Shown here piece by piece: positions 5,268 to 40,664 of a stretch of DNA of 41,798 nt (the first letter of the stretch is position 1; every line of letters starts with the position of its first letter). The DNA lies in the IMG/VR virus record IMGVR_UViG_3300046009_010344, positions 1 to 41,798 of that record. One strand, 5' to 3'. Below the pieces are notes generated by a model that was given only the letters and a program-made list of their open reading frames with translations, made no database searches and had not been told where the DNA came from. The translations under genes were made by a program, and so were the position numbers. Origin of the DNA: a virus.

Positions 5268-5277
5268 GGAGGGATCT

Positions 5278-5706
5278 GTGAAGATATACATAGCGGCGAG
5301 CTTTGCCGATAAGCATTACATGCGTGTCGTTCGGAATGCCCTGATGGATCAGGGACACACTGTTACCTCGGACTGGCTCGACACCGAGGGTGACGGAATG
5401 ATTCCGGAGGACATCTCCGGCGACACGGCGAGGGCCCAGAACGGCGCACTCACCGATATGCGCGGAATCCGTACTGCCGAATGGGTTGCGGTATTCACCG
5501 ATACGCCCAGCACTACGGGTGGCCTGCACGTCGAGCTGGGCATAGGTATAGGCTTGAAGAAGAAGGTCGTGGTAGTGGGGCCATTGCTGAATGTGTTCTG
5601 CGCCCTCCCGATCATCGAGCACTTCGACAATGTGGGCGATTTCCTGGACCGAACAGAAAAGATCCAGGAAAGGAGGATCAGAACAGATGCCGCCACCAGC
5701 AGCTAA
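5278..5706 (+). CDS. Nucleoside 2-deoxyribosyltransferase-like protein
   Basis: This 142-residue protein resembles the nucleoside 2-deoxyribosyltransferase fold. It opens with a short strand and turn (KIYIAASFAD), has a nucleotide-contact region, and has GGLHVELG, where E86 aligns with the catalytic nucleophile. GLKKKVVVVGP completes the Rossmann-like core. Members move deoxyribose between bases or hydrolyse the N-glycosidic bond of deoxynucleotides. GTG start behind GGAGG. It shares the nucleotide-pool theme with ThyX and the MazG-like protein; the true substrate is not clear. Confidence 0.75.
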   Translation: MKIYIAASFADKHYMRVVRNALMDQGHTVTSDWLDTEGDGMIPEDISGDTARAQNGALTDMRGIRTAEWVAVFTDTPSTTGGLHVELGIGIGLKKKVVVVGPLLNVFCALPIIEHFDNVGDFLDRTEKIQERRIRTDAATSS

Positions 5707-8565: not shown

Positions 8566-9477
8566 ATGGAAACCCCAGGCAATGAAGTCGCGCGTTATGC
8601 AGACGTGGCGATGTACGACGCCGAGCTCAATCCCCTAGCTGCGGTAGGGCAGGATGTTCGTCCGCAGGCGTATCTGATCAGCATGACCCCGAATCCTCTG
8701 CGGGTGATGGCAGCCGCCAGTGAGCTATATGCTGGTCGCGTTGTTACCGATCCTGAGATGGTCAGTCGCGAAACGGCCGAACGATGGCTGGCCGACATGA
8801 CCAAGACTGCCCTTCAGGCGCCGCTTGAGTTCATCGACCTGCACTTCCTGTTCGATGGCGTGACGCGCGCCTTCACGCACCAGCTAGTTCGGCAACGCAC
8901 GGCCGTGTTCGTACAGGAGAGTCAGCGCTTCGCGGTGAAGACCGGCGCCCGGTGGGAGGTGGCCTATCCGCCGAGCATCGCCGACCTGAAGGACGACGAC
9001 CCGCGTCGTGTCCTATGGGACGGTGCAGTGACGCACTCGGCGGACATATACACGGCGCTGATCGAGGCTGGCGTACCTGCAGAGGACGCTAGGGGACTGC
9101 TACCGACCAACATCACAACGCGCGTCCACTACAAGACCAACCTGCGCAACCTCGCGACCCACGCCGGGATGCGGCTGTGTTCCCAGGCCCAGGCCGAGTG
9201 GAAGATGGTCTGGGCCGAGATGATCAACGCCATATGGCAGTACGGACCCCAAGAGGATCGGTGGCAGCAGGAGGCCATCGGCAGGCTGTTCAAGCCGGTG
9301 TGCTACCAGACCGGCCGTTGTGAGTTCCGCGCCGAGACCGATCGTCACTGCGTAATTCGCGAGCGGGTGGAAGCCCACCACGCCAAGGGCGAAGGCCCAG
9401 AGGTCTGGATCGACATCGACCCACGCGAGCCAGTACGCGAAGGCGCCGCTCGCCTGGCCCCGGGAGCACAGCGGTAA
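8566..9477 (+). CDS. thyX: FAD-dependent thymidylate synthase ThyX
   Basis: ThyX makes dTMP from dUMP using methylenetetrahydrofolate and FAD. The signature is visible as R109-Q-R111, then seven residues, then S119 (RQRTAVFVQES), a variant of RHRx7S with Gln in place of His, followed by QRF. Upstream FLFDGVTRAFTHQLVR fits the family helix, and the C-terminal half carries PTNITTRVHYKTNLRNL. Its 303 residues are slightly longer than most ThyX. It works in the same pathway as the dCMP deaminase encoded at 37261. Confidence 0.93.
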   Translation: METPGNEVARYADVAMYDAELNPLAAVGQDVRPQAYLISMTPNPLRVMAAASELYAGRVVTDPEMVSRETAERWLADMTKTALQAPLEFIDLHFLFDGVTRAFTHQLVRQRTAVFVQESQRFAVKTGARWEVAYPPSIADLKDDDPRRVLWDGAVTHSADIYTALIEAGVPAEDARGLLPTNITTRVHYKTNLRNLATHAGMRLCSQAQAEWKMVWAEMINAIWQYGPQEDRWQQEAIGRLFKPVCYQTGRCEFRAETDRHCVIRERVEAHHAKGEGPEVWIDIDPREPVREGAARLAPGAQR

Positions 9478-10578: not shown

Positions 10579-10768
10579 CTGCACCTGCACAAATACGTGC
10601 GGCGTCCCGTGTGTCCCGTGTGATGGCCTGATATCCGGTAACGACCTTCTCTGTGACCAATGCAGGAATTCGTTCGGGATACCGCACTGTCACCGGGAGC
10701 ACGGGCTAGCTATGTTTATCGCGCATACCAAGTTCCTGAAGGAGATGCTGGGTGGTGAGGAAGAATGA
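10529..10768 (+). CDS. Cys-rich zinc-binding protein
   Basis: I chose GTG 10529 because AGGAAG lies 5 bases upstream; it lies inside the HIT gene's end in another frame and gives 79 residues. The core packs seven cysteines and two histidines (CTCTNTC, CVPC, CDQC, HCHREH), enough for two zinc sites. The stop overlaps the next gene's ATG, so it is coupled to the polymerase PHP gene. No family recognised. Confidence 0.65.
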   Translation: MSSSQSPKRTRPAPLTDCTCTNTCGVPCVPCDGLISGNDLLCDQCRNSFGIPHCHREHGLAMFIAHTKFLKEMLGGEEE

Positions 10769-11685
10769 AGTTCGTTAACCTGCACCACCACACGTCCTTC
10801 TCATTCGGCGACGGATTCGGAATGCCGAACCAGCACGTTGCCCGTGCGGCCGAGCTTGGGTATTCCGCTATTGCCTTTACCGAGCACGGCAATATCTCCA
10901 GTCACTTCCAGGCTGAGAAAGCCGCGCTCAAGACCGGTATAAAGCCCATCTTCGGTGTCGAGGCTTACTGCGGTGCTGTGGGCGAGGACAAGCAGCAATT
11001 CAAATTCCACCTTACGATCCTGGCGGCGAACAATGAAGGATACCGAAACCTCAACCGAATCGTCACCCAATCCTACCGAGATTTCCATTACCATCCGACT
11101 GTCTCCGGAGCTAGCCTCCATGATAACAGCGCTGGTCTCGTGGTTCTCTCGGGTTGTTCAGGATCTCTCCTCGCTTGCACGCTCACTGGAGGAAAAGGGA
11201 TTCCTGACCCGGGAGGAGTCAACCTCATCTCGGCCCGTCGCGTCATCGAGAGCTTCAAGAGGACGTTCGGCGACAGGTACTTCCTCGAGATCCAGCCGTT
11301 CCCAGAGCTAGATCACTCGGAAGCTATCAACGGTAGCTATGCCTGGCTGAGTAAGCAGACCGGCGTTCCTCTGGTCGTCACTCACGACGTCCATTATCCA
11401 AAGTACGAAGATCACGAGATGCAGGCTGTGCTACACGCTGTCCATCGCGGAAAGGCTTCCGTTGATGACGCAATGCGCGAATGGAACTACGAGGTCCCGA
11501 TGACCCTCCCTGACTCGGACAACGAGCTATACGACAGGCTCCGCCAGACCGGCCTGAATCGTCAGGATTCAATAGATGCCATCATCAACTCAGCCGCCAT
11601 ATCCGACACACTGAACGTGACGCTACCCAAGGCAGAGCGCCTACGCTACCCGGCCACAGAGGAAGACCTGGCGCCATGGAGATGA
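10765..11685 (+). CDS. dnaE: DNA polymerase III alpha, PHP-domain half
   Basis: These 306 residues correspond to the N-terminal PHP domain of bacterial DnaE. Metal-binding motifs are intact by eye: LHHHTSFSFGDG (residues 6-17), FTEHGNI (38-44), GVEAY, and VTHDVHY. FHLTILAANNEGYRNLNRI matches a standard DnaE block. The chain ends after LRYPATEEDLAPWR, where normal DnaE continues into the thumb/palm. The next gene supplies that part in the -1 frame and overlaps this one by 10 bases. No intein sequences are present at the junction. Confidence 0.9.
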   Translation: MKFVNLHHHTSFSFGDGFGMPNQHVARAAELGYSAIAFTEHGNISSHFQAEKAALKTGIKPIFGVEAYCGAVGEDKQQFKFHLTILAANNEGYRNLNRIVTQSYRDFHYHPTVSGASLHDNSAGLVVLSGCSGSLLACTLTGGKGIPDPGGVNLISARRVIESFKRTFGDRYFLEIQPFPELDHSEAINGSYAWLSKQTGVPLVVTHDVHYPKYEDHEMQAVLHAVHRGKASVDDAMREWNYEVPMTLPDSDNELYDRLRQTGLNRQDSIDAIINSAAISDTLNVTLPKAERLRYPATEEDLAPWR

Positions 11686-13937
11686 CCTCTGAAGAGCTGA
11701 TGTGGCAATGGCTGCGGTTCGGATGGAGCTTCCGTAGAATCAGCGAGCGGCCTAAGAAGGATCAGGAATGGTATGGCGAGCGCGTCAAGTACGAGATGGG
11801 CCTGATCGTAGACAAGGACTACCCGGACTTCTTTCTGGCCACGAGCGACATGGTGCGCTGGGCGAAAGATAACGGGATCCCTGTTGGGCCGGGCCGTGGC
11901 TCAGTGGCAGCGTCCGTGGTTAGCTGGCTCCTCCGCATAACCGAGGTTGACCCGATACGCTACCCACACCTGCTGTTTGAGAGGTTCATTGACGTCACCC
12001 GATCCGACCCGCCCGACATCGACCTGGACTTCGCGGATGATCGCCGGCACGAGGTCTTTGAGTACATGGCGAGCAAGTACGGATCTGACTGTGTCGGTAG
12101 CGTTGCAAACTTCATACGGTATCGGGCCAAGAACAGTCTCCAGGATATTGCGCGTGTGTATAACGTCCCCATCGGAGCAAAAGAAACGGTAAGCAATCTC
12201 ATCATTGAGCGCTCCGGCGGCGACAGCCGTTTTGACTCCAGCCTCGCGGACACCGTGGACATGTTTCCTTCGGCGGCCGCAGTGTTCCAGCAATTCCCGG
12301 ATCTGTGGAAGGCTACTGAGCTTGAGGGCAATGTCCGGGGCATGAGCATTCATGCGGCCGGCATGATCGTCGCGAACAGCCCGCTGACGGATGTGTGCGC
12401 GGTGTACGAGCGTGATGGCCGGCAGGTTCTGTCCATTGACAAGTACGACGTTGAGTACGCTGGCGCGCTGAAGATGGACTGCCTTGGCCTTACTACAATG
12501 GGCATAATATCTTCATGTCTGGCAATGACCGGCCTTACCCTGGAGGACCTGTATGCGATTCCCGATGACGATGCAGAGGCACTCGAGATATTTCGATCTG
12601 GAGATGTCACCGGAATCTTTCAGTTTGAGGGTCGTGCGACGCGACTTGTCAACCGCGATGTTCGTCCGGATTCTTTTGCGGAAGTCATCGACATCAATGC
12701 GCTATCTAGGCCTGGACCTCTGTTTTCCGGTACGACGGCAGAGTACTCCGAAGTCAAGCACGGAAAGCGAAAGGCCGAACGGTATCATCCCATCATCGAC
12801 AAACTGACGGCGCACACCAAGGGCCAGATCATCTACCAGGAGCAGATTCTCCAGATCGTACGCGAGGTCGGAGGATTCGACTGGACCAACGCAAATGAAA
12901 TCCGCCGTATCATCGCGAAGAAGATCGGAGAGGCTGCCTTCAATGTGAGCATGGGCAGCTTCGTAGAGGGTGCGGAAAGGCTGCACGGTATCAAGGCCGA
13001 GCTAGCCCAGCGCATCTGGAAGCGCCTCGTGACTAGCGGCACGTATGCTTTTGTGTACGCCCACTCCGTCAGCTACAGCATTCTCGGCCTCTGGTGCGCC
13101 TGGCTCAAGGCCCATTACCCACTTGAGTTCTATGCGGCGTCCCTCGCTCGGGCGGGCGATGAGGAATCTCAGTTCAAGCTCATGAAGGACGCCATCGCAC
13201 ACGACATCAGCATTGTTCCGCCGGTACTGAACGCTAGCCGAAAGTCCTGGCGCGCCGTTCCCAGCCTAGGGCTCGTGGCTGGATGGAGCCAGATTCCCGG
13301 TGTCGGCCCCAAGACGGCTGATCGCATTGATTATCTGCGATGGGGCGACAATGCTGAAACGTTCAGTTCCTGGGAAGATCTCCTTGTCATACCCGGCATT
13401 GGCCCGAAGACCGTGCAGAAGATGCAGGAATTCGCTACAGGCTACGACCCATTCAAGCTGAAGCTGACTGAGAACAGGATGAACCGCTCGCTTGACTGGC
13501 TGGCGAATCAGGATCGCGTACCGTTCCCAACGCACAACGGGCTAGAGATTGCCGAGATCAAGGTAGAGCAGAGCTACGGCGCCAATGCTAAGGCTAAGTA
13601 TGGCGAAGGGCCGGAGGTCGTTTACGCCGGAATCGTCAGACAGAGGAACATGCAGGACGCTGTCGAGAACCGGCGCTCCCGTACTGGCGAAGAGGCCGAG
13701 GATATCCTGAGGGACCTGAAGCGGCCGGACCTTCTTGAGTACTGCTCGCTGCGCTGCTTTGACACCACAGACGAGGAAGTCTATCTGCGCATCAACAGGT
13801 TCAAGTTCCCGGCCCTGAAGCGCGTCATCGAGTCTATTGCCGTCAACCATGATGTCGTCATCGCGGTCGGTAATCGTATCGCAGGATTCGGAACGCCGGT
13901 AATGGTTAAGCGCCTATACTGTATTGACCCCGACTAG
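11676..13937 (+). CDS. dnaE: DNA polymerase III alpha, catalytic half
   Basis: This 753-residue catalytic part of a DnaE polymerase has palm motif GPGRGSVAAS near residue 75, PDIDLDF with catalytic D114 and D116, and KMDCLGL with D268. A fingers region follows, then tandem helix-hairpin-helix motifs (IPGVGPKTADRI near 540, IPGIGPKTVQKM near 572), then a beta-rich C-terminus that may be the OB domain. ATG 11676 lies inside the end of the PHP gene; GAGGAAG is 10 bases upstream. With the PHP half it should form the phage replicative polymerase as two chains. Confidence 0.92.
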   Translation: MEMTSEELMWQWLRFGWSFRRISERPKKDQEWYGERVKYEMGLIVDKDYPDFFLATSDMVRWAKDNGIPVGPGRGSVAASVVSWLLRITEVDPIRYPHLLFERFIDVTRSDPPDIDLDFADDRRHEVFEYMASKYGSDCVGSVANFIRYRAKNSLQDIARVYNVPIGAKETVSNLIIERSGGDSRFDSSLADTVDMFPSAAAVFQQFPDLWKATELEGNVRGMSIHAAGMIVANSPLTDVCAVYERDGRQVLSIDKYDVEYAGALKMDCLGLTTMGIISSCLAMTGLTLEDLYAIPDDDAEALEIFRSGDVTGIFQFEGRATRLVNRDVRPDSFAEVIDINALSRPGPLFSGTTAEYSEVKHGKRKAERYHPIIDKLTAHTKGQIIYQEQILQIVREVGGFDWTNANEIRRIIAKKIGEAAFNVSMGSFVEGAERLHGIKAELAQRIWKRLVTSGTYAFVYAHSVSYSILGLWCAWLKAHYPLEFYAASLARAGDEESQFKLMKDAIAHDISIVPPVLNASRKSWRAVPSLGLVAGWSQIPGVGPKTADRIDYLRWGDNAETFSSWEDLLVIPGIGPKTVQKMQEFATGYDPFKLKLTENRMNRSLDWLANQDRVPFPTHNGLEIAEIKVEQSYGANAKAKYGEGPEVVYAGIVRQRNMQDAVENRRSRTGEEAEDILRDLKRPDLLEYCSLRCFDTTDEEVYLRINRFKFPALKRVIESIAVNHDVVIAVGNRIAGFGTPVMVKRLYCIDPD

Positions 13938-13950
13938 GAGCTATTGTGAG
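13937..13950 (+). repeat. GGAGCTATTGTGAG start-site repeat, copy 1
   Basis: The same 14 bases occur at 14611-14624. Each copy holds a GGAG ribosome binding site, a 5-base spacer and a GTG start (13946 and 14620). It looks like a short duplicated initiation cassette. Confidence 0.5.
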
Positions 13951-14623
13951 AAAGCGCCTCATAGACTTCTGCTGCAAGGCTGGCGGAACGTCCATGGGCT
14001 ACCACATGGCCGGATTCGAGGTGGTCGGTGCAGACAAGGAGCCGCAGCCGAATTACCCTTTCGAATTCTACCAGCAGGACATCACCAGTCTGACCGATAA
14101 GCAAGTATCCAACATCGGAAAGAACTTCGATGCGATAGCCGGTAGCCCACCATGCCAGCGTTACACAAGGTCGTACACGGCGAAGAGAGAACAGCATCCT
14201 GATCTTGTCGATCCGTTTCGAGAGATAGCTGAGGCTACTGGGCTGCCATATGTAATAGAGAATGTCGTAGGCGCTCCTCTGATCGATCCGGTTCAGCTAT
14301 GCGGCTCTGCTTTCGCGCTGCGTGTGCAGAGGCATCGACTATTCGAAAGCAATGTGCCCATCAAGGGAATACGATGCAATCATCAATGGCAGGAACGCCA
14401 TAAGCCGTATCTGAAGATAGCCAATGGACCGGGTAGTGAGAGAGCAGCCGGCATAATAGAGGTGTACGGTGGCGGCGACGGAACCCATATCAGAGGTAGA
14501 CGACAGATCGATATAACAGCCATAGCTATGGGTATCGACTGGATGAATACAGGCGAGCTAGCCCAGGCAATCCCGCCTGCCTACACATTCTATCTTGGCC
14601 GACAACTAATGGAGCTATTGTGA
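13946..14623 (+). CDS. C5-cytosine DNA methyltransferase-like protein
   Basis: This 225-residue methyltransferase follows the C5-cytosine order: SAM motif I IDFCCKAGGTSMGY (6-19), acidic GADKE, catalytic GSPPCQRYT with C70, YVIENVVGA (102-110), QRHRLFES (128-135), and a final PPAYTFYLGRQL. The target-recognition region is very short (about 60 residues). It is much smaller than bacterial Dcm enzymes, so it may be a compact phage enzyme that protects DNA from host restriction. A mononucleotide substrate cannot be excluded. GTG start from the repeated cassette. Confidence 0.87.
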   Translation: MRKRLIDFCCKAGGTSMGYHMAGFEVVGADKEPQPNYPFEFYQQDITSLTDKQVSNIGKNFDAIAGSPPCQRYTRSYTAKREQHPDLVDPFREIAEATGLPYVIENVVGAPLIDPVQLCGSAFALRVQRHRLFESNVPIKGIRCNHQWQERHKPYLKIANGPGSERAAGIIEVYGGGDGTHIRGRRQIDITAIAMGIDWMNTGELAQAIPPAYTFYLGRQLMELL

Positions 14624-14624
14624 G
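14611..14624 (+). repeat. GGAGCTATTGTGAG start-site repeat, copy 2
   Basis: This is the second copy of the initiation cassette described at 13937. Here it overlaps the end of the methyltransferase gene and supplies the GTG of the next gene. Confidence 0.5.
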
Positions 14625-14838
14625 CATCGCCGAGAAGCCAGTTGTGGTCCACCCCGACAGCATGGATGCCGAGGCATTCCACAAGCACATGAACAATCGG
14701 CACCGTGATAGCCTTGGCGGCCTTTCCAGTATCTCATTCAAGTCAGACTACCTGACCCTGTGCTGGCGCAACTTTCACCGCAGGCTGCACGCTCTCCGGC
14801 CCGACCTGACGCACGACCACGGCGAATACCGCCCGTAA
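14620..14838 (+). CDS. Small conserved-type phage protein, unknown
   Basis: This 72-residue protein begins at GTG 14620, overlapping the methyltransferase stop. The central FHKHMNNRHRDSLGGLSS and the end LTHDHGEYRP are rich in His; I have the impression of similar short proteins in actinophages but no known function. It is the last rightward gene; its TAA sits in the loop of a hairpin. Confidence 0.75.
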   Translation: MSIAEKPVVVHPDSMDAEAFHKHMNNRHRDSLGGLSSISFKSDYLTLCWRNFHRRLHALRPDLTHDHGEYRP

Positions 14839-15021: not shown

Positions 15022-15849
15022 CTAGGTGAGGATCTCCACCGACACCAGCGGGTAGCCATCGGTCGGCTCCGCACCGCGCCGCAGTACCAGCGCGCTGACG
15101 TTGTCGGGAATGTCGAGGCCAGCCGGACCATCATCGTAGCTGGTGGTCAGCGTCGCATTCGTGACGCCAGCCCCGAAGTCAACTCCGATGTTGACCTCCT
15201 CCTCGTTGCAGTAGAGCCGGAGACGCCGAGTTGCGTCGCCGACCTTGCGCGGCAGGGACACCGGGCTGTTGGGCCTGTCGGCCAGATAGAACGGCATGCT
15301 CACTTCCTTCGGTTCGGGCTGAACCTGGACAGGGTCGTTACCCCGAGCCCAGTTGATAACCTTGTCCATGGGGAATCCGGGGCCACAGTTGAAGTGGCCA
15401 CCGCCCCAGGAGCCCAGATCGACGTGCTGCGCCACTCCTCGGCCGCTGCTCTGAGCCTGGCCAGGCGTCAGGGCGACGATCGGAATGCTGAACCGAGCGG
15501 CTTCCTCCGCAATCCATGCCGCTGTATTGCGCAGCATAGGCTCGTGGTCGCCGAGCCACTGGTCCCTGGTCCAGCTAGCGAATCCGCATTGCTCCGCCTG
15601 CACGGCGACCGGATTCGCATTGGTGGCTGTCCAGGCCTTGTTGCCCCGGGTGACGTACTCGCCGATAATCCCAGGCTTGTCGTCGATCCCGACATGCGAG
15701 GAAACCTGGTTGCTGGCGTTCTGGAAGAAGTGCCCGAGGTCCTCAATTGTCCTAGCGCCCTCGGCGGTGTGGAGAACGATCAGGCGAACATTCGCCCCAC
15801 CACGAGAGGAGAAGCACGGAGACGGAATCCACAGCCGGTTAAGAGGCAT
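15022..15849 (-). CDS. Endolysin, N-acetylmuramoyl-L-alanine amidase
   Basis: This 275-residue amidase_2-type endolysin cuts the bond between muramic acid and the peptide stem. Metal-site candidates are H27 (VLHTAEG), H52 (SSHVGID), and H142 or H152 with C155 (HFNCGPGFP). A proline-rich linker near 170-180 leads to a C-terminal beta-rich domain (from about 185), probably the wall-binding part. ATG 15849 is behind GGCGGAGGA. It is the last gene of the late operon, next to the holin candidate. No lysin B is seen. Confidence 0.9.
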   Translation of the reverse strand: MPLNRLWIPSPCFSSRGGANVRLIVLHTAEGARTIEDLGHFFQNASNQVSSHVGIDDKPGIIGEYVTRGNKAWTATNANPVAVQAEQCGFASWTRDQWLGDHEPMLRNTAAWIAEEAARFSIPIVALTPGQAQSSGRGVAQHVDLGSWGGGHFNCGPGFPMDKVINWARGNDPVQVQPEPKEVSMPFYLADRPNSPVSLPRKVGDATRRLRLYCNEEEVNIGVDFGAGVTNATLTTSYDDGPAGLDIPDNVSALVLRRGAEPTDGYPLVSVEILT

Positions 15850-16024
15850 CCGATTCCTCCGCCGGATCGACGGGCGGATTCACATGAGTCTGCTCCGTCA
15901 CATGGGGCTCAGGAACAGGCATCACCTGCGGCCGGTCTTCGGTGTCCTCCTCGAGATCGGCGAACCGGCCTTTCCGAGCCAGCCAGTCCTCGTAATCCGG
16001 ATGCTGGTGGTGCTTGTCCGTCAT
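15839..16024 (-). CDS. 61-residue acidic protein in lysis block
   Basis: Starts MTDKHHQHPDYEDWLARKGR at ATG 16024 behind AGGAAGGAG and ends inside the endolysin start (11-base overlap). The chain is acidic and Pro-rich with no membrane segment. It lies between the holin candidate and the endolysin and may be a soluble lysis accessory; the role is unknown. Confidence 0.7.
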   Translation of the reverse strand: MTDKHHQHPDYEDWLARKGRFADLEEDTEDRPQVMPVPEPHVTEQTHVNPPVDPAEESDAS

Positions 16025-16278
16025 GACGGCTCCTTCCTGGTAAGCGAAGGGTACAGCGGAGTACCGCTCTTTCCCTTGGGATCCGCGACCGGGGTGACGA
16101 CCTGGCGCGTGGCAAGCGCCGCTACTGCGCCCACCGCCGCGATGATCACCTGGGTGTCGATCACCCCGTGGTCGCGGAACGCATTGACGACCGCCAGGAC
16201 AGCCGCGAGGATCGCCATCCCGGCCGACATCAGGCCAGCCGGATTCGTCTTGGGAGAAAGTACGCGCGCTGCTTTCAT
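16021..16278 (-). CDS. Holin candidate
   Basis: This 85-residue protein has two hydrophobic helices: GLMSAGMAILAAVLAVVNAF (residues 15-34) and IIAAVGAVAALA (45-56), separated by a short charged turn (RDHGVIDTQ). The C-terminus is basic (PKGKSG...LTRKEPS). This fits small class II-type holins, and it lies two genes upstream of the endolysin. ATG 16278 overlaps the upstream gene and its TGA overlaps the next ATG. It would form membrane lesions that let the amidase reach the wall. Confidence 0.75.
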   Translation of the reverse strand: MKAARVLSPKTNPAGLMSAGMAILAAVLAVVNAFRDHGVIDTQVIIAAVGAVAALATRQVVTPVADPKGKSGTPLYPSLTRKEPS

Positions 16279-27848: not shown

Positions 27849-28580
27849 TTAGTATGTGCTGGCCATCGGGCCAACGTTCTGCGAGAATGTAGTGCCTGGA
27901 ACAAGCGGGCTTGGAAGGGTCCCGAAGGAGCCATTCACCTGGCCAGTGACGAAACCCTCGACCAAATTCGGGAACCCGAGGAACCTGGCCGTTGTACCGT
28001 TGGTCTGAAGGCCGATGTAGTACACAGTAGGCCCGACCACCGGAACCTGAGCTGTGAATGGGAACTGCTTCTTGGTGTTCGAGGACGGAGCTGCTATCCC
28101 CGAGAGAGATGAGTTGGCAATCAGATTTCCTGCAGCGCCGAATAGCGCACCGATCCACAGATCGGTCCCGCCAACACTGCCGGCCGTAAATGTGACCCCG
28201 GTCAGAAGCACATTGAAAGGAATCACCAGGGCAGCATAGAACGTCGCGCCGGCAACGCCTAGCGTGTTAGCCCCAGAAGTAGAGTTCAGAGCGGCTGGGA
28301 GACCTCCAGTAGCGAACGAGGTGAACCCAGAAGTGATAGGACTCTGGCCACCAGGAGACGATACAACACCAGCCGAGTCAACCTTGTACTTCGAAACGCC
28401 ATTGGAATCCTGCAAGTCTATGAGCGTACCGGCAGACCTGATCCTAAGAGCTGGGGCGGCCGAATCGTCATTCTCAATGGCGAACGCCGGATTCCCTTGC
28501 GACGCTGCTCCGGGCTGATGGTTGATTGCCAGGGCAGGACGGGATACGCCTACGTTCCTGATGTACTCGTCTAGCGGCAC
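27849..28580 (-). CDS. Head fibre/decoration-like structural protein
   Basis: This 243-residue protein starts at GTG 28580 behind GGGAGGG. The N-terminus (PLDEYIRNVGVSRPALAINHQPG) leads to a fibre-like stretch (IDLQDSNGVSKYKVDSAGVV) often found at the base of trimeric fibres, then a Gly/Ala/Thr-rich beta domain resembling a jelly roll. A capsid fibre or virion surface protein is likely. The 62-base gap downstream holds nothing I can name. Confidence 0.62.
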   Translation of the reverse strand: MPLDEYIRNVGVSRPALAINHQPGAASQGNPAFAIENDDSAAPALRIRSAGTLIDLQDSNGVSKYKVDSAGVVSSPGGQSPITSGFTSFATGGLPAALNSTSGANTLGVAGATFYAALVIPFNVLLTGVTFTAGSVGGTDLWIGALFGAAGNLIANSSLSGIAAPSSNTKKQFPFTAQVPVVGPTVYYIGLQTNGTTARFLGFPNLVEGFVTGQVNGSFGTLPSPLVPGTTFSQNVGPMASTY

Positions 28581-28581
28581 T

Positions 28582-28770
28582 TTACCCTCCCGTCCAATCC
28601 CTTGGGTACTGCCATCCGTCGTGCATGCAGAACAGAATTCCGGGCTCACTGGGCGGCCCAGGCTTCAGCGGAGTGCCGTCGTTCGGACACGCCGTCGGAG
28701 GCTGGGCCGCCCAGAACTGCTGTTCCTCCTCATTACTCTTGAGGATGCTCAGCAGCTGCTCGAATCCCAT
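28582..28770 (-). CDS. 62-residue zinc-ribbon protein
   Basis: MGFEQLLSILKSNEEEQQFW opens with a helix, then CPNDGTPL...ILFCMHDGWQYPRDW. The CPNDGTPL and GWQYPRDW blocks are familiar in small head-region proteins of Streptomyces phages; C-N-D with C-M-H could form a zinc ribbon. It lies one base before the fibre-like gene. Role unknown. Confidence 0.75.
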   Translation of the reverse strand: MGFEQLLSILKSNEEEQQFWAAQPPTACPNDGTPLKPGPPSEPGILFCMHDGWQYPRDWTGG

Positions 28771-28772
28771 GA

Positions 28773-29402
28773 CTAGGCTCGGTTCCCCTTGCCCTTGCCG
28801 CCGCTCGTCCTGGACGCCCTGGTCGGGCCATCCTTCGGAGACCCGACGGACGGGTCATGGACAGCCGGGCCAGCTTCGCCCGTGAAGGCCGTGCCGGTGA
28901 CCGAGTCGGACGGGGCAGGCTGGTCGTCCGGGGTCTCGCCCGCACCCTGGCCCGCCATCGCCATGTGGCTAGGATCCGTGCTAACGGATCCCTTCTCGTC
29001 CGCCCCACCCTCGGCCGACCCGGCGCCCTCCGACGATGCAGCAGCAGCCTGGTCACCAGGCGAAGGAGACTCCGGAGGAGCGCCCTGCCCGCCTTCCGGG
29101 TCAGGCAGTACCGGCGGATCCACGCCAGCCTTCTGGTCAGCGATGGTCACCGTCTCGTCGGCCGGGATGCCGGCCGCCTTCTGGTCGGCGACGCTGATCA
29201 GCTCAGGCTCCTCGTCCTCCTCATCCTTCAGACCCAGCGGGTCGTCAGGCGAGACGGACTCGTGGTCGCCGTCGTTCAGGTTCTCGAACAGACCATCGTC
29301 CTGAGCCTGCTGCTCATCGACCCAGTGATCGGCGCCACACTGCGGACACTCCGGTGCCGGAGCGTAGGCGGTGCCACAGTTGGTGCATACGTGCAGTGCC
29401 AT
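28773..29402 (-). CDS. Zinc-ribbon protein with long acidic disordered tail
   Basis: This 209-residue protein begins with a complete zinc ribbon (CTNCG at residues 5-9, CPQCG near 17-21). The remainder is acidic, Pro/Gly/Ser-rich and probably unfolded, with repeated ADQKAAG / IADQKAG units near the middle, and a basic end (GGKGKGNRA). ATG 29402. It may be a scaffold or adaptor in head assembly; inference from position only. Confidence 0.7.
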   Translation of the reverse strand: MALHVCTNCGTAYAPAPECPQCGADHWVDEQQAQDDGLFENLNDGDHESVSPDDPLGLKDEEDEEPELISVADQKAAGIPADETVTIADQKAGVDPPVLPDPEGGQGAPPESPSPGDQAAAASSEGAGSAEGGADEKGSVSTDPSHMAMAGQGAGETPDDQPAPSDSVTGTAFTGEAGPAVHDPSVGSPKDGPTRASRTSGGKGKGNRA

Positions 29403-34618: not shown

Positions 34619-34904
34619 CCGAGTCGCTCACCTTCCACTCGAACAGGAACCAGCTGATCCCCGTCGCGAGAAGGCCGCTGAATAGCGAGTGCGTGAAGAA
34701 TGCCGCATCAATGCAGGTGAATCCGAATATGGTGTAGACATGGTCTCGGATGTGCTCAGCCGAAGCACGGGTGCGAACGCGAGCGGAACGCACTACATTC
34801 CCAAGGACTGCAGCTGTTACACCGGCTGCCTTGCGCGCTCGCGCCTTCCAGATGCCTTTCCTGGGGTCAGGGACCACCCATGGCGGTACATTCGCATCGC
34901 TCAT
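34611..34904 (-). CDS. Small membrane protein between terL and portal
   Basis: This 97-residue protein has a basic N-terminal half (RKGIWKARARKAAGVTAAVLG...RSARVRTRASAEH) and a hydrophobic C-terminal half (FGFTCIDAAFFTHSLFSGLLATGISWFLF) with one or two membrane helices. It is coupled to the terminase gene by ATGA. Membrane proteins in this slot are uncommon in siphophages; the role is unknown. Confidence 0.72.
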   Translation of the reverse strand: MSDANVPPWVVPDPRKGIWKARARKAAGVTAAVLGNVVRSARVRTRASAEHIRDHVYTIFGFTCIDAAFFTHSLFSGLLATGISWFLFEWKVSDSDG

Positions 34905-36280
34905 GCCGTGAAGCTCCTAAATACAGCCCGGACGCCGAAGTCCTGCTCGGCAACCATGTACCTCATGGCGTCACAGCCGTCGTCGTCAACCTTGGTGGGC
35001 GCTTCCTTGCCCTTGCCATCCCAGACGTACCCAGGAATCTCCTCGATGGTACTTGTGGGCCGGGCACTGTCGACAAGCTCAGCGTCCTTCCGAACCAGGG
35101 CTGTCCGCAGGAAGAAGACGCGCGGCCTACCATCCCCGGCGTCCTTCATGCGCACCTGGCAAGCCTCGATGCCTTCCAGAACTGATTTGTGGGCGGGAGA
35201 CGTGCTCATACCAGTCTCCCGCTCCAGCACGGCCCTTCCCTCGGCATCGTGGTCACAGATTATGCCACGAGGCTTCGGCTCTTTCCAGATTCGCTGCTTC
35301 CCGGTCTCGTCATCCGGATCAAGCGGCGCGACAATGTTCATGATCTCGGCGGCGTGCACGTCGACAGTACGGCGCGTATGGAAGATTTCCCTGTACAGGT
35401 ACAGACGGCCATCCTCGTCCACGGCCCAGCACTGGAGAACGAATGGGTGGACGAATCCGAAGTCGACTGACCAGTAACGCGGCCACTTCACCGGAACACC
35501 GAATGCGTCTATCTCGCGCTCTCCGGCTGGGATTTCGTTGATGATATGCGTATCCGGAACGAAATCCTCGTAGATACTGCCCTCGGCACTGACCCAGTTA
35601 CCCAGTCGGAGCCTTTCGTGCCGCACTCCGGTGAGGCTGTCCAGCTTACTCAGGTAATCAGCACCACGCGTCGTCACATCACCGTTAGCCCCGAACAGGA
35701 TCGGGTTGTCCTCGTGCCGGCTCTCAAGCATTGTCGTGTGCCCATTGACGCACCGCATCCTGAGCCAGTGTGTTGGCGACGAAGGGTTACAGTCACCGAT
35801 GATCTGCTGGAAGGACACGCGCCAGCTACGTAGCCGGGTAGTCAGCGCCTCCCAGTCGTTCTCGGTAAGCTCAGTAGCCTCCTGGACGTAAATCAGGTCG
35901 TATTCCGACGACATGATCTTGCTAATCTTGTCCAGGCCGCCGATTACGATGACCGAGCCGTTCTTGTACCGGTACTGCGCAGGCTCCGATGCGCTGCCGC
36001 CGTAGTACTCGACGTCGCCAGCCAGCAATGCCTCCTGGATGACGAAGCGCCGGAAGGTCACGAGCGCCGTACCGGACAGGGTGGCGCCGGTCTTTCGGCA
36101 GACGAGCCCACGCATGCCCGGATTGGCGAGGCACATCGCGTGCAGCTTCTCCAGGCATGCGCGGCTCTTCCCGGTGCCCGCTGGGCCAGCGACGAGCACT
36201 TCGGGGTCTCTGCACAGATATAGCTGGCGACAGGCACCACGCGGGCGGTATGTATGCTTACTTCTGGCCGCCGTACTCAA
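34901..36280 (-). CDS. terL: Terminase large subunit
   Basis: This 459-residue packaging motor/nuclease has Walker A AGPAGTGKS (31-39), Walker B YDLIYVQEATEL (127-138), and coupling region IIGDCNPSSPTHWL. The nuclease domain has SVDFGFVHPFVLQCW, with the first metal-binding Asp, and later CDHDAEGRAVLERE. Start appears to be TTG 36280, since no ATG/GTG lies between it and Walker A; it overlaps the small subunit's TGA (TTGA). It cleaves and translocates DNA through the portal. Confidence 0.93.
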   Translation of the reverse strand: MSTAARSKHTYRPRGACRQLYLCRDPEVLVAGPAGTGKSRACLEKLHAMCLANPGMRGLVCRKTGATLSGTALVTFRRFVIQEALLAGDVEYYGGSASEPAQYRYKNGSVIVIGGLDKISKIMSSEYDLIYVQEATELTENDWEALTTRLRSWRVSFQQIIGDCNPSSPTHWLRMRCVNGHTTMLESRHEDNPILFGANGDVTTRGADYLSKLDSLTGVRHERLRLGNWVSAEGSIYEDFVPDTHIINEIPAGEREIDAFGVPVKWPRYWSVDFGFVHPFVLQCWAVDEDGRLYLYREIFHTRRTVDVHAAEIMNIVAPLDPDDETGKQRIWKEPKPRGIICDHDAEGRAVLERETGMSTSPAHKSVLEGIEACQVRMKDAGDGRPRVFFLRTALVRKDAELVDSARPTSTIEEIPGYVWDGKGKEAPTKVDDDGCDAMRYMVAEQDFGVRAVFRSFTA

Positions 36281-36792
36281 GTAAGAGCCTGCACGATCTC
36301 CTCGTCGGCTTCAAGAACATAGTGCACGACATTGCTGTCGCCAGCACCGGCCTTGTCGACGCGAGATGGCAGGAACTCATCAGCCGCATTCCGCATGGTG
36401 ATGTTCCACGAGCGAACCAGGTTGTTGTGCTCCTTGCCGCCAGGGTTGCTCCTGCGAGCGGCGTCAATGTCGTCGCGCAGCTCATCTACCATCGCCTGGT
36501 ACTCGGCCACACGGTTAACCCGCTTGGATATCCACAATCCGGCCGTCTCAATGGCGATTTCGCCGGCCAGGGCACCACGAACCTCGGTAACCTCGTCAGC
36601 ATTCATCGCGGCGAAGGTTGCGACCTCTACGACCGGGACCTTCAGCTGATTCGCAAGCTCGCGGTAGGTCCACTCACCTAGAGCGAGGTCCCGGATCAGC
36701 GCCAGACGGGCACGGCCCCGGTAGAGCTCAAGGGTGACCAGGTCAGAGCCAGCGCTACGTCCGCTGCCGCCCCTGCTCGCTGTCCCCGCCAT
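36277..36792 (-). CDS. terS: Terminase small subunit
   Basis: This 171-residue protein directly precedes terL. An HTH-type segment (WTYRELANQLKVPVVEVATFAAMNADEV, residues ~40-68) would bind the packaging site, and a helical oligomerisation region (RVAEYQAMVDELRDDIDAARRS) follows. ATG 36792 behind TAGGAGG. Sequence match is general, so the call rests on the HTH, the helical body and the position. Confidence 0.78.
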   Translation of the reverse strand: MAGTASRGGSGRSAGSDLVTLELYRGRARLALIRDLALGEWTYRELANQLKVPVVEVATFAAMNADEVTEVRGALAGEIAIETAGLWISKRVNRVAEYQAMVDELRDDIDAARRSNPGGKEHNNLVRSWNITMRNAADEFLPSRVDKAGAGDSNVVHYVLEADEEIVQALT

Positions 36793-37055: not shown

Positions 37056-37298
37056 TTAGATGCACTCCACCTTTCCGTGGACCCTGCAAGCCCTGTTGAT
37101 ATACTTGATACGCCACTTCTTGAAGCCGATAGCTACCCAGGTACACTTATCGCACCCTGGGAATTCGCCTGTGACCTCAGTCAGCGGGATAATCCTGATC
37201 CTGGACGGGTGACCCTGTGCAATCCTGGCCGTTCCCGAACCAGTACCGCTAATGTGCGGCTTACTCGTTCCGGTCTGGCGTCTCTTCTTCGCCGACAC
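37056..37298 (-). CDS. Small basic Cys protein
   Basis: This 80-residue protein begins at GTG 37298 behind GGAGGAG, within the end of the deaminase gene. It is strongly basic (KKRRQTGTSKPH, FKKWRIKYINR) and carries C-x2-C (GCDKC) plus CRVHGKVEC, a possible zinc-ribbon. It may bind nucleic acid; not recognised. Confidence 0.65.
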   Translation of the reverse strand: MSAKKRRQTGTSKPHISGTGSGTARIAQGHPSRIRIIPLTEVTGEFPGCDKCTWVAIGFKKWRIKYINRACRVHGKVECI

Positions 37299-37701
37299 TG
37301 TACGCTCCTCCGGGCGTTACCACCCTTGCGATTCCTGCGGTAGATATTATCCTGCTGCAGTCAGCGCATGGCCTATCCGTACAGTATAGCGTGGATCCGT
37401 CCAGTAGCCTATCAGACCGGAATGCATAACGTATCGCAGCCGCTTCGGCATGCACAGCGTGGCATAGGCCTGGCCCTGACTTGTAATCTGCGCCATGCGG
37501 CACCTGCTCGGTGGTAAGTAGCCCACGAGGACAGCCTCCGGCCATGCAGCCTGGCCCTGAGGGAACCGCATTGGAACCCGTAGCAATCTGGCGACCCAGT
37601 ACATTGACGATCACCGCGCCTACACGCCTGCGTCGGCAGTCGGCATTCCTCGAGACATCGCCGGCTACCCTGAGCCAGAAAGCATTCGTGTTGTATTCCA
37701 T
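37261..37701 (-). CDS. dCMP/cytidine deaminase-like protein
   Basis: This 146-residue zinc deaminase has the catalytic HAE at 84-86 and PCADC (C112, C115), completing the H-C-C zinc site and the proton-shuttling Glu. Extra Cys in GCMAGGCPRG (52-60) match the second structural zinc of phage dCMP deaminases. It would turn dCMP into dUMP, the substrate of ThyX. ATG 37701 overlaps the TGA of the upstream microprotein. It overlaps the next gene by 38 bases. Confidence 0.9.
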   Translation of the reverse strand: MEYNTNAFWLRVAGDVSRNADCRRRRVGAVIVNVLGRQIATGSNAVPSGPGCMAGGCPRGLLTTEQVPHGADYKSGPGLCHAVHAEAAAIRYAFRSDRLLDGSTLYCTDRPCADCSRIISTAGIARVVTPGGAYSVGEEETPDRNE

Positions 37702-37799
37702 CACCCACACCTCGGACACTTCTTGACCTTCTCGCCGTCCCATATGGTGCCGGATCCGCCGCAGCCCGGGTAGGTACATTCGGGGTCGTGTGATTTCAT
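37701..37799 (-). CDS. 32-residue zinc-ribbon microprotein
   Basis: ATG 37799 (AAGGGATGGCG upstream) encodes MKSHDPECTYPGCGGSGTIW, ending KKCPRCG. C-x4-C plus C-x2-C form a full rubredoxin-like zinc ribbon. Its TGA overlaps the deaminase ATG (TGATG). An in-frame ATG at 37805 is possible. Confidence 0.7.
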   Translation of the reverse strand: MKSHDPECTYPGCGGSGTIWDGEKVKKCPRCG

Positions 37800-37821: not shown

Positions 37822-37852
37822 CCAGCGCGGGCCACCTCATTGCCCGCGCTGG
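37822..37852 (-). terminator. Strong GC-rich terminator hairpin
   Basis: A perfect 11-bp inverted repeat pairs CCAGCGCGGGC (37822-37832) with 37842-37852 over a 9-base loop. It follows the stop of the gene at 37874 on the - strand and separates the secreted-protein unit from the deaminase/terminase operon. Confidence 0.75.
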
Positions 37853-37873
37853 ACACTCAAGAGCCGGGCCGGG

Positions 37874-38152
37874 TCAGTTCTTGGTCGTCAGGAACGAACA
37901 GACCACTTGCTCGTTGGACGCGGCCAGCACCGAACCCGAATCGGGTGACGACTCGGTGCGGAACAGCCGGACCTTGACCGTCCTCGCCCCGGTGACCTCG
38001 CAGGTGCCTCCGACGATCCCCGCTCCGGCACCGGACTGCGGCGACTGCACGGTCATCTGGCACTGGTCGAAGTCGGCGTCGAAGGTGAGGGTCTTGGAAC
38101 CGGTGGAGTCAAGCGTGAACGAATCGTCGCGGCTCTCAACAAGAGTGGGCAC
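37874..38152 (-). CDS. Small beta protein, unknown
   Basis: This 92-residue protein starts at GTG 38152 behind AAAGGAAG. The sequence (DSFTLDSTGSKTLTFDADFDQCQMTVQSP...TVKVRLFRTESS) looks like a single beta-sandwich with three Cys. No signal peptide. It is the last gene of the secreted-protein unit. A 6-bp hairpin at 38181-38197 lies in the gap upstream. Function unknown. Confidence 0.7.
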   Translation of the reverse strand: MPTLVESRDDSFTLDSTGSKTLTFDADFDQCQMTVQSPQSGAGAGIVGGTCEVTGARTVKVRLFRTESSPDSGSVLAASNEQVVCSFLTTKN

Positions 38153-38204
38153 GATGCTTCCTTTCGCTAGGGAATCGGGCGTAGGAGGCGATCCTACCGC
38201 GCGG

Positions 38205-38756
38205 TTAGGCTGCCGGCGTGAGGACGGCCCGGAAGGACATGTTCGAGATCCTCCACTTGTCGCCCAGTCCGTCGCTGCCGGAAAGGGCCAGGCCCCAGGT
38301 GTTCGGGCTGCCAGCCGCAGTGTCGCAGCGCCGGTTGATCACGACCAGGTTACCGTCCTCCACCTTGAACGTCCAGACGGTGCCCAGCGCGCTCGGGTCG
38401 GACTTCAGGGTGGCGTTGCTGCAGTCATTGGTCGAGGCCAGCAGAATGCCACCGCTGAACGTGATGTTGCCGGTCTGGTTGCCCATGTACGTACCGCTGG
38501 TCGGGAACCAGTGCAGCGTGCGCCCGGGGTGGTTCACCGCGATGGCGGGCGTGTTCGGGATCAGGTTGTCGTTGCCGACCGCGAACGAGGATCCGAACTT
38601 CTCCCAGATGTTGAACGGGTTGTTCGTCGGGCCACTCGTATCCATTGCAGCGCTGTTCGTCGGCGCCGCGCTGGCCCCGGTAACCGCGATCGTGGCCGGC
38701 AGACACCCTGCAGCCAGTACGGCCACGGAGAGGGCCAGCCTATTGAGAATGCTCAC
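38205..38756 (-). CDS. Secreted protein of the beta-trefoil-like cassette
   Basis: This 183-residue protein begins at GTG 38756 (GAAGGAGGAAGCAA upstream). A Sec signal peptide is clear: short basic start, hydrophobic LALSVAVLAAG core, cleavage near TGASAA. The mature part contains LLASTNDCSNATLKSD, GTVWTFKVEDGNLVVINRRC and LGDKWRISN, which match in order the protein at 39584 (ASTNDC..., GTVWIF..., HQWQVS). Repeated aromatic-G-C patterns suggest a beta-trefoil/lectin fold. It would be exported by the infected cell. Confidence 0.8.
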   Translation of the reverse strand: MSILNRLALSVAVLAAGCLPATIAVTGASAAPTNSAAMDTSGPTNNPFNIWEKFGSSFAVGNDNLIPNTPAIAVNHPGRTLHWFPTSGTYMGNQTGNITFSGGILLASTNDCSNATLKSDPSALGTVWTFKVEDGNLVVINRRCDTAAGSPNTWGLALSGSDGLGDKWRISNMSFRAVLTPAA

Positions 38757-38875
38757 TTGCTTCCTCCTTCGCTGTCGCCGGATGGTCCGGCAACTAGCTT
38801 GTCGCCGTGAGTGGGGCACAGGTTGTTGACCCGGCGCACTCCGTCAATCTCACGGCAAGTACAGATGGCCGCCAT
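38753..38875 (-). CDS. 40-residue Cys-rich microprotein
   Basis: ATG 38875 to TGA 38753 gives MAAICTCREIDGVRRVNNLC then PTHGDKLV. C-x-C, C and H could bind one zinc. It is squeezed between two secreted-protein genes and overlaps the next GTG (GTGA). Confidence 0.6.
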   Translation of the reverse strand: MAAICTCREIDGVRRVNNLCPTHGDKLVAGPSGDSEGGSK

Positions 38876-38876
38876 G

Positions 38877-39434
38877 TCAGGCCGCCGTGTGGAAGCTGAA
38901 CTGCTCGTTCAGGCCGGTGCCCTGGCCAGGGTTACGGTTGAACACCTCACCGGTGATGGCGTCGATACGCAGGGACAGCCCAGTCGACTTGTTCACCAGG
39001 ACGAAGCTGTGGAAGTTCCCGGGCACCTCGTAGAACTGCTGCAGCGTACCACCGTTGCAGAAGGTGAACTCAGCCAAGCTGCCGCTCGTGGCGTCACTGG
39101 TCACGCAGAGGCCGCTGGCCTGGCCGCGCGGCGCCCACCGGATCATCGTCACGGTGCTGTCGCCGAATGGGGCCTTGATGATGAAGTCCTGGCGACGACT
39201 CTGGGCCGGCATGGCTGAGATGAGCCGGGCACCCGGAAGCGGGTGCCTGACGTCAACTGACAGCGCCAGCGCCTGCGGAGCGTCCAGGATACCGACACAG
39301 CGCTCGGTGGGCAGCGCGTCACACGCTGCCGTCTGGTCCGGGTGGACAGCCGCCGAGGCTGTACCCGTGAGGGAAGCGGCCGCAGCAACTGCCGAGACCA
39401 TCCCGATCAGGGCTGCCAGATAATTCTTGTTCAT
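38877..39434 (-). CDS. Secreted lectin-like protein
   Basis: This 185-residue protein has a Sec signal peptide (MNKNYLAALIGMVSAVAAAA...TASAA, cleavage near residue 29). The mature part shows GLCVTSD, FCNGGTLQQFYEVPG, FVLVNKSTGLSLRID and NEQFSFH, the QxW-like and C-paired turns seen in ricin-B/beta-trefoil domains. It is preceded by a good promoter candidate. It probably acts outside the cell; a sugar-binding role is inferred. Confidence 0.8.
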   Translation of the reverse strand: MNKNYLAALIGMVSAVAAAASLTGTASAAVHPDQTAACDALPTERCVGILDAPQALALSVDVRHPLPGARLISAMPAQSRRQDFIIKAPFGDSTVTMIRWAPRGQASGLCVTSDATSGSLAEFTFCNGGTLQQFYEVPGNFHSFVLVNKSTGLSLRIDAITGEVFNRNPGQGTGLNEQFSFHTAA

Positions 39435-39468
39435 TTCGATCTCCTGTCCTTTCGGTATTAGTCAGGCA

Positions 39469-39496
39469 ATTGTAAGGCCTGTCTTCCTGTTTACAA
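39469..39496 (-). promoter_or_regulatory. Sigma70-like promoter for the secreted-protein unit
   Basis: On the - strand TTGTAA (39496-39491), a 16-base spacer and TACAAT (39474-39469) form a good -35/-10 pair. It lies 35 bases before the ATG at 39434, just past the terminator of the upstream gene. The surrounding AT-rich stretch stands out. Confidence 0.55.
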
Positions 39497-39527
39497 AACG
39501 TAATCTCTTTGCGATTTCGTCAGGGCC

Positions 39528-39567
39528 CAGCCCGACCGGGGCATTCCGTAGGGAACCGGTCGGGCTG
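39528..39567 (-). terminator. Terminator hairpin after the first secreted gene
   Basis: CAGCCCGACCGG (39528-39539) pairs perfectly with 39556-39567 over a 16-base loop. It begins 17 bases after the stop of the gene at 39584 and ends that transcription unit. Confidence 0.78.
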
Positions 39568-39583
39568 GACGCTCACGGAATCC

Positions 39584-40105
39584 CTAGGACTCGATGACGA
39601 TCTTGCGGTAGAGGGACAGGTCCGAACTGACCTGCCACTGGTGGCCGGCCACGTCGTCCGACGCCATCACGACGTCGTACTCATCGTGCCCGTTGCAGTA
39701 CTGCGGCACCAGGAAGATGTGCCCGCCGATAGGCGCGAAGATCCACACCGTCCCGTTACTGGACACCGACGACTTGATCGTCACCTTCCGGCAGTCATTC
39801 GTGGACGCCATGTAGTTGCCATGCGCCGGGTTGCTGAATGCGAACAGGTACTTCGGGAAGCCGTTGATGTCGACTCCCATTTCCGTCTCGTACAAACGCA
39901 CGCAGTTGGCCGAGTTCGACTTCTGGATCACCGGCTGTCCGGGGTTGGCACCTCCGCTACCGAGCCCGACACACATCGGTGCTCCGTTCTCGGTGTACAC
40001 GAGAACACCATCCCCGACGTTCTGGTGCACGCCAGCGCTCGAGACGCCACCACCCGCAAGGGCGACAGCAATCGCGACTCCGATGGCCACGAACATCTTC
40101 TTCAT
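39584..40105 (-). CDS. Secreted protein of the beta-trefoil-like cassette
   Basis: This 173-residue protein begins MKKMFVAIGVAIAVALAGGG, a strong Sec signal peptide with likely cleavage near VSSAG. AAAGGAGAATC precedes ATG 40105. The mature part has YMASTNDCRKVTIKSS, GTVWIFAPIGGHIFLVPQYC and DVAGHQWQVS, parallel to the protein at 38205. It forms its own unit, ending at the hairpin 39528. Function unknown; exported lectin-like protein is the best description. Confidence 0.8.
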   Translation of the reverse strand: MKKMFVAIGVAIAVALAGGGVSSAGVHQNVGDGVLVYTENGAPMCVGLGSGGANPGQPVIQKSNSANCVRLYETEMGVDINGFPKYLFAFSNPAHGNYMASTNDCRKVTIKSSVSSNGTVWIFAPIGGHIFLVPQYCNGHDEYDVVMASDDVAGHQWQVSSDLSLYRKIVIES

Positions 40106-40283: not shown

Positions 40284-40664
40284 TCACGCGACCATCTTGG
40301 TGAACCACACGGTCTTACCGTTCGGAGCACTGTCCACTCCTATCTGGTCCACGAGCGCCCTCACGATAGAGATGCCCCGACCGAAGTCTACACGCTTTGT
40401 ATCAGCGATGTCCGGCCTTGCATCCGTTACTCGGAATACTACCTCGTGACCCTTTTCCTTACTGTAGATCGCGAGGACCGCACGGACAGGCATGGCCCCG
40501 TGAATAATCGCATTCGCCACCAGCTCGCTAATGGCCATGGTGATGTCCCACACGTCCTCGCCGTTGGGCCACGCCCAGCGCTCAAGAGCCTGCCTACATC
40601 TGTCTCGTACGTCGCACAGGCTCTCGGCGCTGCTGATGCGCAAAGCGATTCTATTGCTGGGCAT
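40284..40664 (-). CDS. RsbW/SpoIIAB-like ATP-binding protein (anti-sigma type)
   Basis: This 126-residue protein has the GHKL (HATPase_c) fold of anti-sigma serine kinases. The N box is MAISELVANAIIHG (residues 43-56, E47 and N51), with VTDARPD as G1-like and DFGRGISIVRALVDQIGV...GKTVWF as G2. There is no other domain, as in RsbW and the many Streptomyces relatives. It could bind a host sigma factor or an anti-anti-sigma partner and redirect transcription during infection; this is inference. It overlaps the upstream gene by 14 bases. Confidence 0.88.
   Translation of the reverse strand: MPSNRIALRISSAESLCDVRDRCRQALERWAWPNGEDVWDITMAISELVANAIIHGAMPVRAVLAIYSKEKGHEVVFRVTDARPDIADTKRVDFGRGISIVRALVDQIGVDSAPNGKTVWFTKMVA

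What the first reader, a model, noticed from the sequence alone, without database searches (positions are those of the whole stretch)
37874..40105. Cassette of phage-encoded secreted lectin-like proteins
Three genes carry clear Sec signal peptides and Cys-paired beta-rich mature parts. Two (38205 and 39584) share the order ASTNDC, GTVW-F, then a late W in a Q/K-W motif, so they look paralogous; the third has ricin-B-like turns. They are in short units with strong terminators and at least one good promoter, apart from the virion genes. Exported phage proteins could block reinfection, act on the mycelial surface or serve the host community.
Basis: partly seen in the sequence, partly recalled or inferred. 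Interest (0 to 1): 0.62.

Follow-up and report, generated by a model that had tools for sequence, protein, structure and literature searches.

The report
Exported lectin-like cargo in soil actinophage
A soil phage of filamentous bacteria carries three genes for small proteins built to be exported from the infected cell; relatives of this phage often carry other exported proteins, including true sugar-binding lectins, at or near the same genome position, which suggests a swappable slot for proteins that act on the cell surface or outside the cell.

Summary
Three genes (38205-38756, 38877-39434, 39584-40105, minus strand) encode 173-185 aa proteins with Sec-type signal peptides. A fourth gene inside the given coordinates (37874-38152) has none. 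The 38205 and 39584 products are paralogues (BLASTP 2e-11). No homologue of the three exported proteins was found in any collection searched. A ricin-B fold is only marginally supported for 38877 and unsupported for the paralogues; AlphaFold gave no usable model. Two very stable hairpins without T-tails delimit two short units.

The stronger result lies outside the window. Related phages, two of them 88-95 kb with repeated ends and no detected integrase, also code exported proteins, often just upstream of the terminase genes: CBM13-type lectins above Pfam cut-offs, an RCC1 propeller, a phosphoesterase, and an Ltp-type protein (a superinfection-exclusion family). So this looks like a variable exported-cargo slot in probably virulent actinophages.

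Best mechanism, inferred and not shown: the proteins are exported and bind the envelope of the infected hypha, blocking a second phage. Auxiliary carbohydrate binding is the main rival.

The parts
37874..38152 (-). P0001, 92 aa, no signal peptide, 3 Cys; last gene of the three-gene unit; no database match
37829..37853 (-). Stable hairpin 3' of P0001 (terminator-like, no T-tail); core CCAGCGCGGGC / GCCCGCGCTGG
   Evidence: I2; -35.8 kcal/mol, z -3.2
38205..38756 (-). P0002, 183 aa exported protein, GTG start, paralogue of P0004
   Evidence: signal peptide; paralogy; no homologues
38877..39434 (-). P0003, 185 aa exported protein, 4 mature Cys, possible ricin-B/beta-trefoil
   Evidence: signal peptide; PF14200 E 0.06 1/60 shuffles
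39469..39496 (-). Sigma-70-like promoter candidate for the P0003-P0002-P0001 unit (TTGTAA-16-TACAAT)
   Evidence: 9 of 12 matches
39527..39568 (-). Very stable hairpin 3' of P0004 (terminator-like, no T-tail); core CCAGCCCGACCGG / CCGGTCGGGCTGG
   Evidence: I1; -47.2 kcal/mol, z -6.9
39584..40105 (-). P0004, 173 aa exported protein, 4 mature Cys, paralogue of P0002
   Evidence: signal peptide; paralogy; no homologues
34901..36792 (-). Terminase large subunit (34901-36280) and probable small subunit (36277-36792): anchor that defines the slot
   Evidence: PHROG terminase matches for the large subunit; collinear relatives of both in G001-G003

Best explanation
A two-unit cassette (P0004 alone; P0003-P0002-P0001) of Sec-exported, Cys-containing small proteins sits in a variable cargo slot upstream of the terminase genes of a probably virulent actinophage. 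During infection the host Sec system exports the three proteins. They fold outside with disulphides and bind polysaccharide or teichoic-acid ligands of the hyphal envelope, most likely masking receptors or DNA-entry sites so that other phages cannot enter the infected, interconnected mycelium (superinfection exclusion). Shown: the genes, signal peptides by sequence rule, paralogy, hairpin boundaries, exported cargo at the slot in relatives, CBM13 lectins in two near-complete relatives. Inferred: actual export, disulphides, binding to the envelope, exclusion. The cargo-slot reading is about 0.75 likely; the exclusion mechanism about 0.35.
For: Signal peptides. Virions assemble in the cytoplasm, so a cleaved signal peptide argues against a structural role (established knowledge). 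Exported soluble genes concentrate upstream of TerL on the same strand in the clade: 16 in 382 kb against 5 in 457 kb downstream, binomial p 0.007; p 0.03 with the window left out. Cargo types differ between phages but share surface themes: CBM13 lectins, Ltp repeats (PF07553, 5e-20), PF04185 phosphoesterase, RCC1. PASTA and a second CBM13 protein lie elsewhere in the genomes of G001 and G002. Ltp is a known superinfection-exclusion family (PMC3952083; Ltp-like gene in an actinobacterial phage, PMC11480721). The nearest named phage by TerL, P1312 (58.7%), has a signal peptide + CBM protein that its authors predict to be wall-anchored and anti-superinfection (PMC4569894). No integrase in G001-G003, so lysogenic conversion is less likely.
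Against: No homologue of P0002, P0003 or P0004 with known function. A lectin fold is not demonstrated for any window protein. About half of the relatives with enough upstream sequence showed no exported gene in the slot. The Ltp protein is in one relative only. No expression or phenotype data.
Confidence: 0.35

Rival explanations
1. Auxiliary cargo for carbon acquisition or adhesion: exported carbohydrate-binding proteins tether infected hyphae or host enzymes to plant or fungal polysaccharide and prolong productive infection.
For: The G002 slot lectin is closest by sequence to CBM13 of an endo-xylanase (1knl, 1.1e-16) and to secreted Streptomyces CBM13 proteins. Soil viral carbohydrate-active genes are known, with one proven chitosanase (PMC9485262).
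Against: Window proteins show no catalytic domain and no clear CBM match; other slot cargo (Ltp, RCC1) does not fit carbon use.
Confidence: 0.25
2. Envelope or lysis management: exported wall-binding proteins stabilise or weaken the hyphal wall to time lysis, or protect against lysis from without.
For: PASTA (wall-binding) repeats in exported protein G001c; G003 codes an exported LysM + transglycosylase-like protein; exported phage lysis factors are known in other systems (T4 RI, PMC8385771).
Against: The window's endolysin (15022-15849) and possible holin (16021-16278) lie more than 20 kb away; no hydrolase domain in the cassette.
Confidence: 0.15
3. Effectors against third parties (competing bacteria, fungi, grazers) released from infected mycelium, benefiting the host community.
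For: Small secreted Cys-rich paralogues with no homologues; a temperate Paenibacillus larvae phage codes a multi-domain protein with PF14200 domains described as a toxin (PMC3764407).
Against: The mature parts are about 150 aa, leaving little room for a toxin domain besides a binding domain; probably virulent phages gain little from helping the host; no toxin-family match.
Confidence: 0.1
4. Virion-associated or otherwise internal proteins whose N-terminal hydrophobic segment is not a real signal peptide.
For: The predictor is home-made and no SignalP was run; P0002 and P0004 have no outside homologue to confirm export.
Against: All three have complete n-, h- and c-regions; they stand apart from the head and tail genes; known head and tail genes are accounted for elsewhere.
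Confidence: 0.08

Closest known systems
CBM13 / ricin-type beta-trefoil lectins (PF00652, PF14200), e.g. Streptomyces xylanase 10A CBM13 (PDB 1knl)
   Same: Small, exported, Cys-containing; true members are found in the related phages G001 and G002.
   Different: Window proteins miss the family cut-offs; P0002 and P0004 show no ricin repeat or profile match.
Ltp-type superinfection-exclusion lipoproteins (PF07553; Streptococcus phage TP-J34)
   Same: Phage-encoded exported surface protein; a two-repeat Ltp protein lies in the slot of relative L062.
   Different: No Ltp domain in the window; window proteins look soluble rather than lipid-anchored; TP-J34 is temperate (PMC3952083).
Thermobifida phage P1312 ORF22 (signal peptide + metallophosphatase + CBM4_9)
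   Same: Predicted secreted, wall-anchored and anti-superinfection protein, in the nearest named phage by TerL (PMC4569894).
   Different: 1096 aa, multi-domain, with an enzyme domain; the window's proteins are single small domains with no match to it tested.
Soil-virus auxiliary carbohydrate-active genes (e.g. viral chitosanase V-Csn)
   Same: Soil phages carrying genes of polysaccharide biology (PMC9485262).
   Different: V-Csn is an enzyme; no enzymatic domain is seen in the window cassette.
Phage PF14200 protein gp26 of Paenibacillus larvae phage phiIBB_Pl23
   Same: Phage-encoded protein with ricin-type lectin domains (PMC3764407).
   Different: 975 aa multi-domain protein described as identical to a toxin, in a temperate phage; here about 150-aa mature proteins in a probably virulent phage.

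Membership tests
Ricin-type beta-trefoil lectins (PF00652/PF14200) | Pfam match above the curated cut-off | tested here: not met
   P0003 14.4 bits against 25.6; P0002 and P0004 none. Met by relatives G001a, G002a and G002b.
Ricin-type beta-trefoil lectins (PF00652/PF14200) | Threefold internal repeat | tested here: inconclusive
   Self-alignment: P0003 6/40 shuffles as good, P0002 36/40, P0004 18/40; positive controls 0/40.
Ricin-type beta-trefoil lectins (PF00652/PF14200) | Profile similarity to CBM13 | tested here: inconclusive
   hhalign: P0003 1/60 shuffles as good, P0004 3/60, P0002 35/60.
Ricin-type beta-trefoil lectins (PF00652/PF14200) | Beta-trefoil fold | tested here: inconclusive
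   AlphaFold2 mean pLDDT 31 and 36.5, unusable.
Ricin-type beta-trefoil lectins (PF00652/PF14200) | Carbohydrate binding | not testable with these tools
   needs binding assays
Sec-exported proteins | n-, h-, c-region signal peptide with AxA cleavage site | tested here: met
   home-made predictor, three clearest hits of the window; SignalP not run
Ltp-type superinfection-exclusion proteins (PF07553) | Ltp repeats | tested here: not met
   no match in the window; met by relative L062 only
Ltp-type superinfection-exclusion proteins (PF07553) | Blocks infection by other phages | not testable with these tools
   needs spot tests
Known anti-phage defence proteins (PADLOC) | Match to a PADLOC model | tested here: not met
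   no family at E 0.1

The most novel reading that the evidence does not exclude
Probably virulent soil actinophages keep a dedicated, rapidly exchanged slot beside the packaging genes for exported proteins (lectins, propellers, phosphoesterases, Ltp, orphan paralogue families) that act on the envelope or outside the infected mycelium; the P0002/P0004 pair is a new protein family in that slot.
Probability: 0.35. Interest if true: 0.7.

Novelty: new variant of a known kind. Interest (0 to 1): 0.5.

Why it matters
Phages known to export surface proteins are mostly temperate. A position where related, integrase-less soil actinophages repeatedly carry different exported proteins would show that infected mycelium is remodelled from outside during lytic growth, would give candidates for superinfection exclusion in filamentous bacteria, and would point to an easily recognised place to look for more such genes.

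Tried and rejected
Homologue searches for P0002, P0003 and P0004: viral contigs, 50,697 phages, plasmids, genome contigs with the P0002/P0004 alignment (31), a codon-degenerate NDC-N36-GTVW pattern in genome and viral collections (50-52; only unrelated proteins or out-of-frame matches), PDB (nothing meaningful): all negative. Structure prediction: pLDDT 31 (two-row alignment) and 36.5 (single sequence), unusable, so no Foldseek search was made. Distribution of the G002/G001 lectin: only the two query contigs in viral contigs (107), none in phages. PADLOC: none (106). Considered and dropped: G003 13703-14797 as a polysaccharide deacetylase (no Pfam match); a lipoprotein reading of P0002 (its LAAGC lacks a canonical lipobox -3 residue). 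Nearest named phages P1312 (ends searched) and Dagobah (whole): no comparable exported gene upstream of terminase by the same predictor.

Full report
What is there. The window is an IMG/VR virus record of 41,798 bases. It carries head, packaging, lysis and replication genes and is collinear with three larger phage records of 88-95 kb (G001-G003), so it is probably a fragment missing the part that lies between the cassette side and the helicase side. By terminase large subunit the nearest named phages are Thermobifida phage P1312 (58.7%) and Streptomyces phage Dagobah (50.5%), so an actinobacterial, probably filamentous, host is likely (inference).

The cassette. Reading from high to low coordinates on the minus strand: P0004 (39584-40105), a very stable hairpin (about 39527-39568; -47.2 kcal/mol, z -6.9), a weak sigma-70-like site (39496-39469), P0003 (38877-39434), P0002 (38205-38756), P0001 (37874-38152), and a second stable hairpin (about 37829-37853; -35.8 kcal/mol, z -3.2). 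Neither hairpin has a T-run, so T-tailed terminator scans miss them. GC at third codon positions is 0.82-0.88 in the four genes against 0.58-0.74 in the immediate neighbours, although the capsid gene reaches 0.89.

Signal peptides and paralogy. With a home-made rule (charged n-region, hydrophobic core, AxA-like site, Shine-Dalgarno, coding bias), P0002, P0003 and P0004 are the three clearest hits of the window; the only others are a Rossmann-type N-terminus and a small two-helix protein near the endolysin. P0001 has no signal peptide. P0002 and P0004 are paralogues (E 2e-11). P0003 is not detectably related to them.

Fold. P0003 has a sub-threshold ricin-B match, recovered at genome level with E 0.0012, but that search also lists frames with stops at comparable scores. 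Against a CBM13 profile built from nine plasmid-borne actinobacterial and acidobacterial sequences and three phage sequences, P0003 scores better than 59 of 60 shuffles, P0004 better than 57, P0002 no better than chance. Internal-repeat tests are negative for the paralogues and weak for P0003, with clear positive controls. AlphaFold models are unusable. I therefore do not file any window protein as a ricin-type lectin; P0003 is a candidate.

Relatives. G001 and G002 have 100-base repeats at their ends, so they are probably complete. Searched with integrase and large-serine-recombinase profiles, G001-G003 give nothing, so they are probably virulent. They encode exported proteins: G002 14100-14672 (CBM13, PF14200 7e-13, 1knl 1.1e-16), immediately upstream of its terminase genes; G002 50155-51093 (CBM13, PF14200 6e-8); G001 59261-59806 (PF00652 4e-9), about 4.7 kb upstream of the small-terminase gene on the other strand; and G001 27879-29087 (PASTA repeats). 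No phage in a collection of 50,697 has a tblastn relative of the G002 lectin at E 0.01.

The slot. A terminase scan gave 80 viral loci. Counting exported soluble ORFs by the same rule, 16 lie within 10 kb upstream of TerL on its strand (382 kb examined) and 5 downstream (457 kb); antisense counts, a noise estimate, are 2 and 1. Binomial p is 0.007, or 0.03 with the window's three removed; after I removed obvious membrane proteins by eye, 11 against 1, p 0.002 (post hoc, and the loci are related, so these are rough). The cargo is of different kinds: CBM13 (G002), RCC1 propeller (L036, 1e-49 and 8e-41), phosphoesterase PF04185 (L058, 4e-49), Ltp repeats (L062, 5e-20), a family shared by L047, L056 and L057, and orphans. 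Five of 21 exported genes have a 3' hairpin stronger than the 5th percentile of random segments. Among the closest relatives with enough upstream sequence, roughly half show such a gene.

Mechanism. Export follows from the signal peptides (inferred). What the proteins do is not shown. Superinfection exclusion is favoured because an Ltp-domain protein occupies the slot in one relative, Ltp is the prototype family of surface-exposed exclusion proteins (PMC3952083) with an actinobacterial phage example (PMC11480721), and P1312's authors predict an exported wall-anchored anti-superinfection protein (PMC4569894). In a mycelial host, whose compartments are connected, excluding rivals would be useful even to a virulent phage (inference). 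Auxiliary carbohydrate binding (PMC9485262 as a soil-virus precedent) is the main rival.

Verdict.

Noticed in passing
window 40284-40664 (-): HATPase_c_2 protein (5e-12), anti-sigma/histidine-kinase-like, PHROG 'transcriptional regulator', next to the cassette.
   Followed up: partly
window 37261-37779 (-): dCMP deaminase (phrog_174, 3e-34) between the terminase genes and the cassette; ThyX-type thymidylate synthase at 8566-9477.
   Followed up: no
window 10765-13937 (+): DNA polymerase III alpha-like protein split into a PHP-domain ORF (10765-11685) and a polymerase ORF (11676-13937) overlapping by 10 bases; the relatives G001-G003 show the two parts as separate matches too.
   Followed up: no
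L062 1108-1695: Exported protein with two Ltp repeats (PF07553, 5e-20) upstream of TerL; only relative of 44 records searched with it.
   Followed up: partly
L058 4806-6170: Exported PF04185 phosphoesterase (4e-49) in a phage contig upstream of TerL.
   Followed up: partly
L036 3972-5123: Exported RCC1-like beta-propeller followed directly by a lipoprotein-like ORF (5125-5766) with an HNH-like C-terminal part by eye.
   Followed up: no
L047 6186-7214, L056 1137-2150, L057 5581-6402: An exported protein family (46% between L047 and L056) shared by three phage contigs at the slot; no Pfam match.
   Followed up: partly
L033 3141-3926 (G003 41141-41926): Exported LysM + transglycosylase-like (Rpf-like) protein, possible endolysin of G003.
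   Followed up: no
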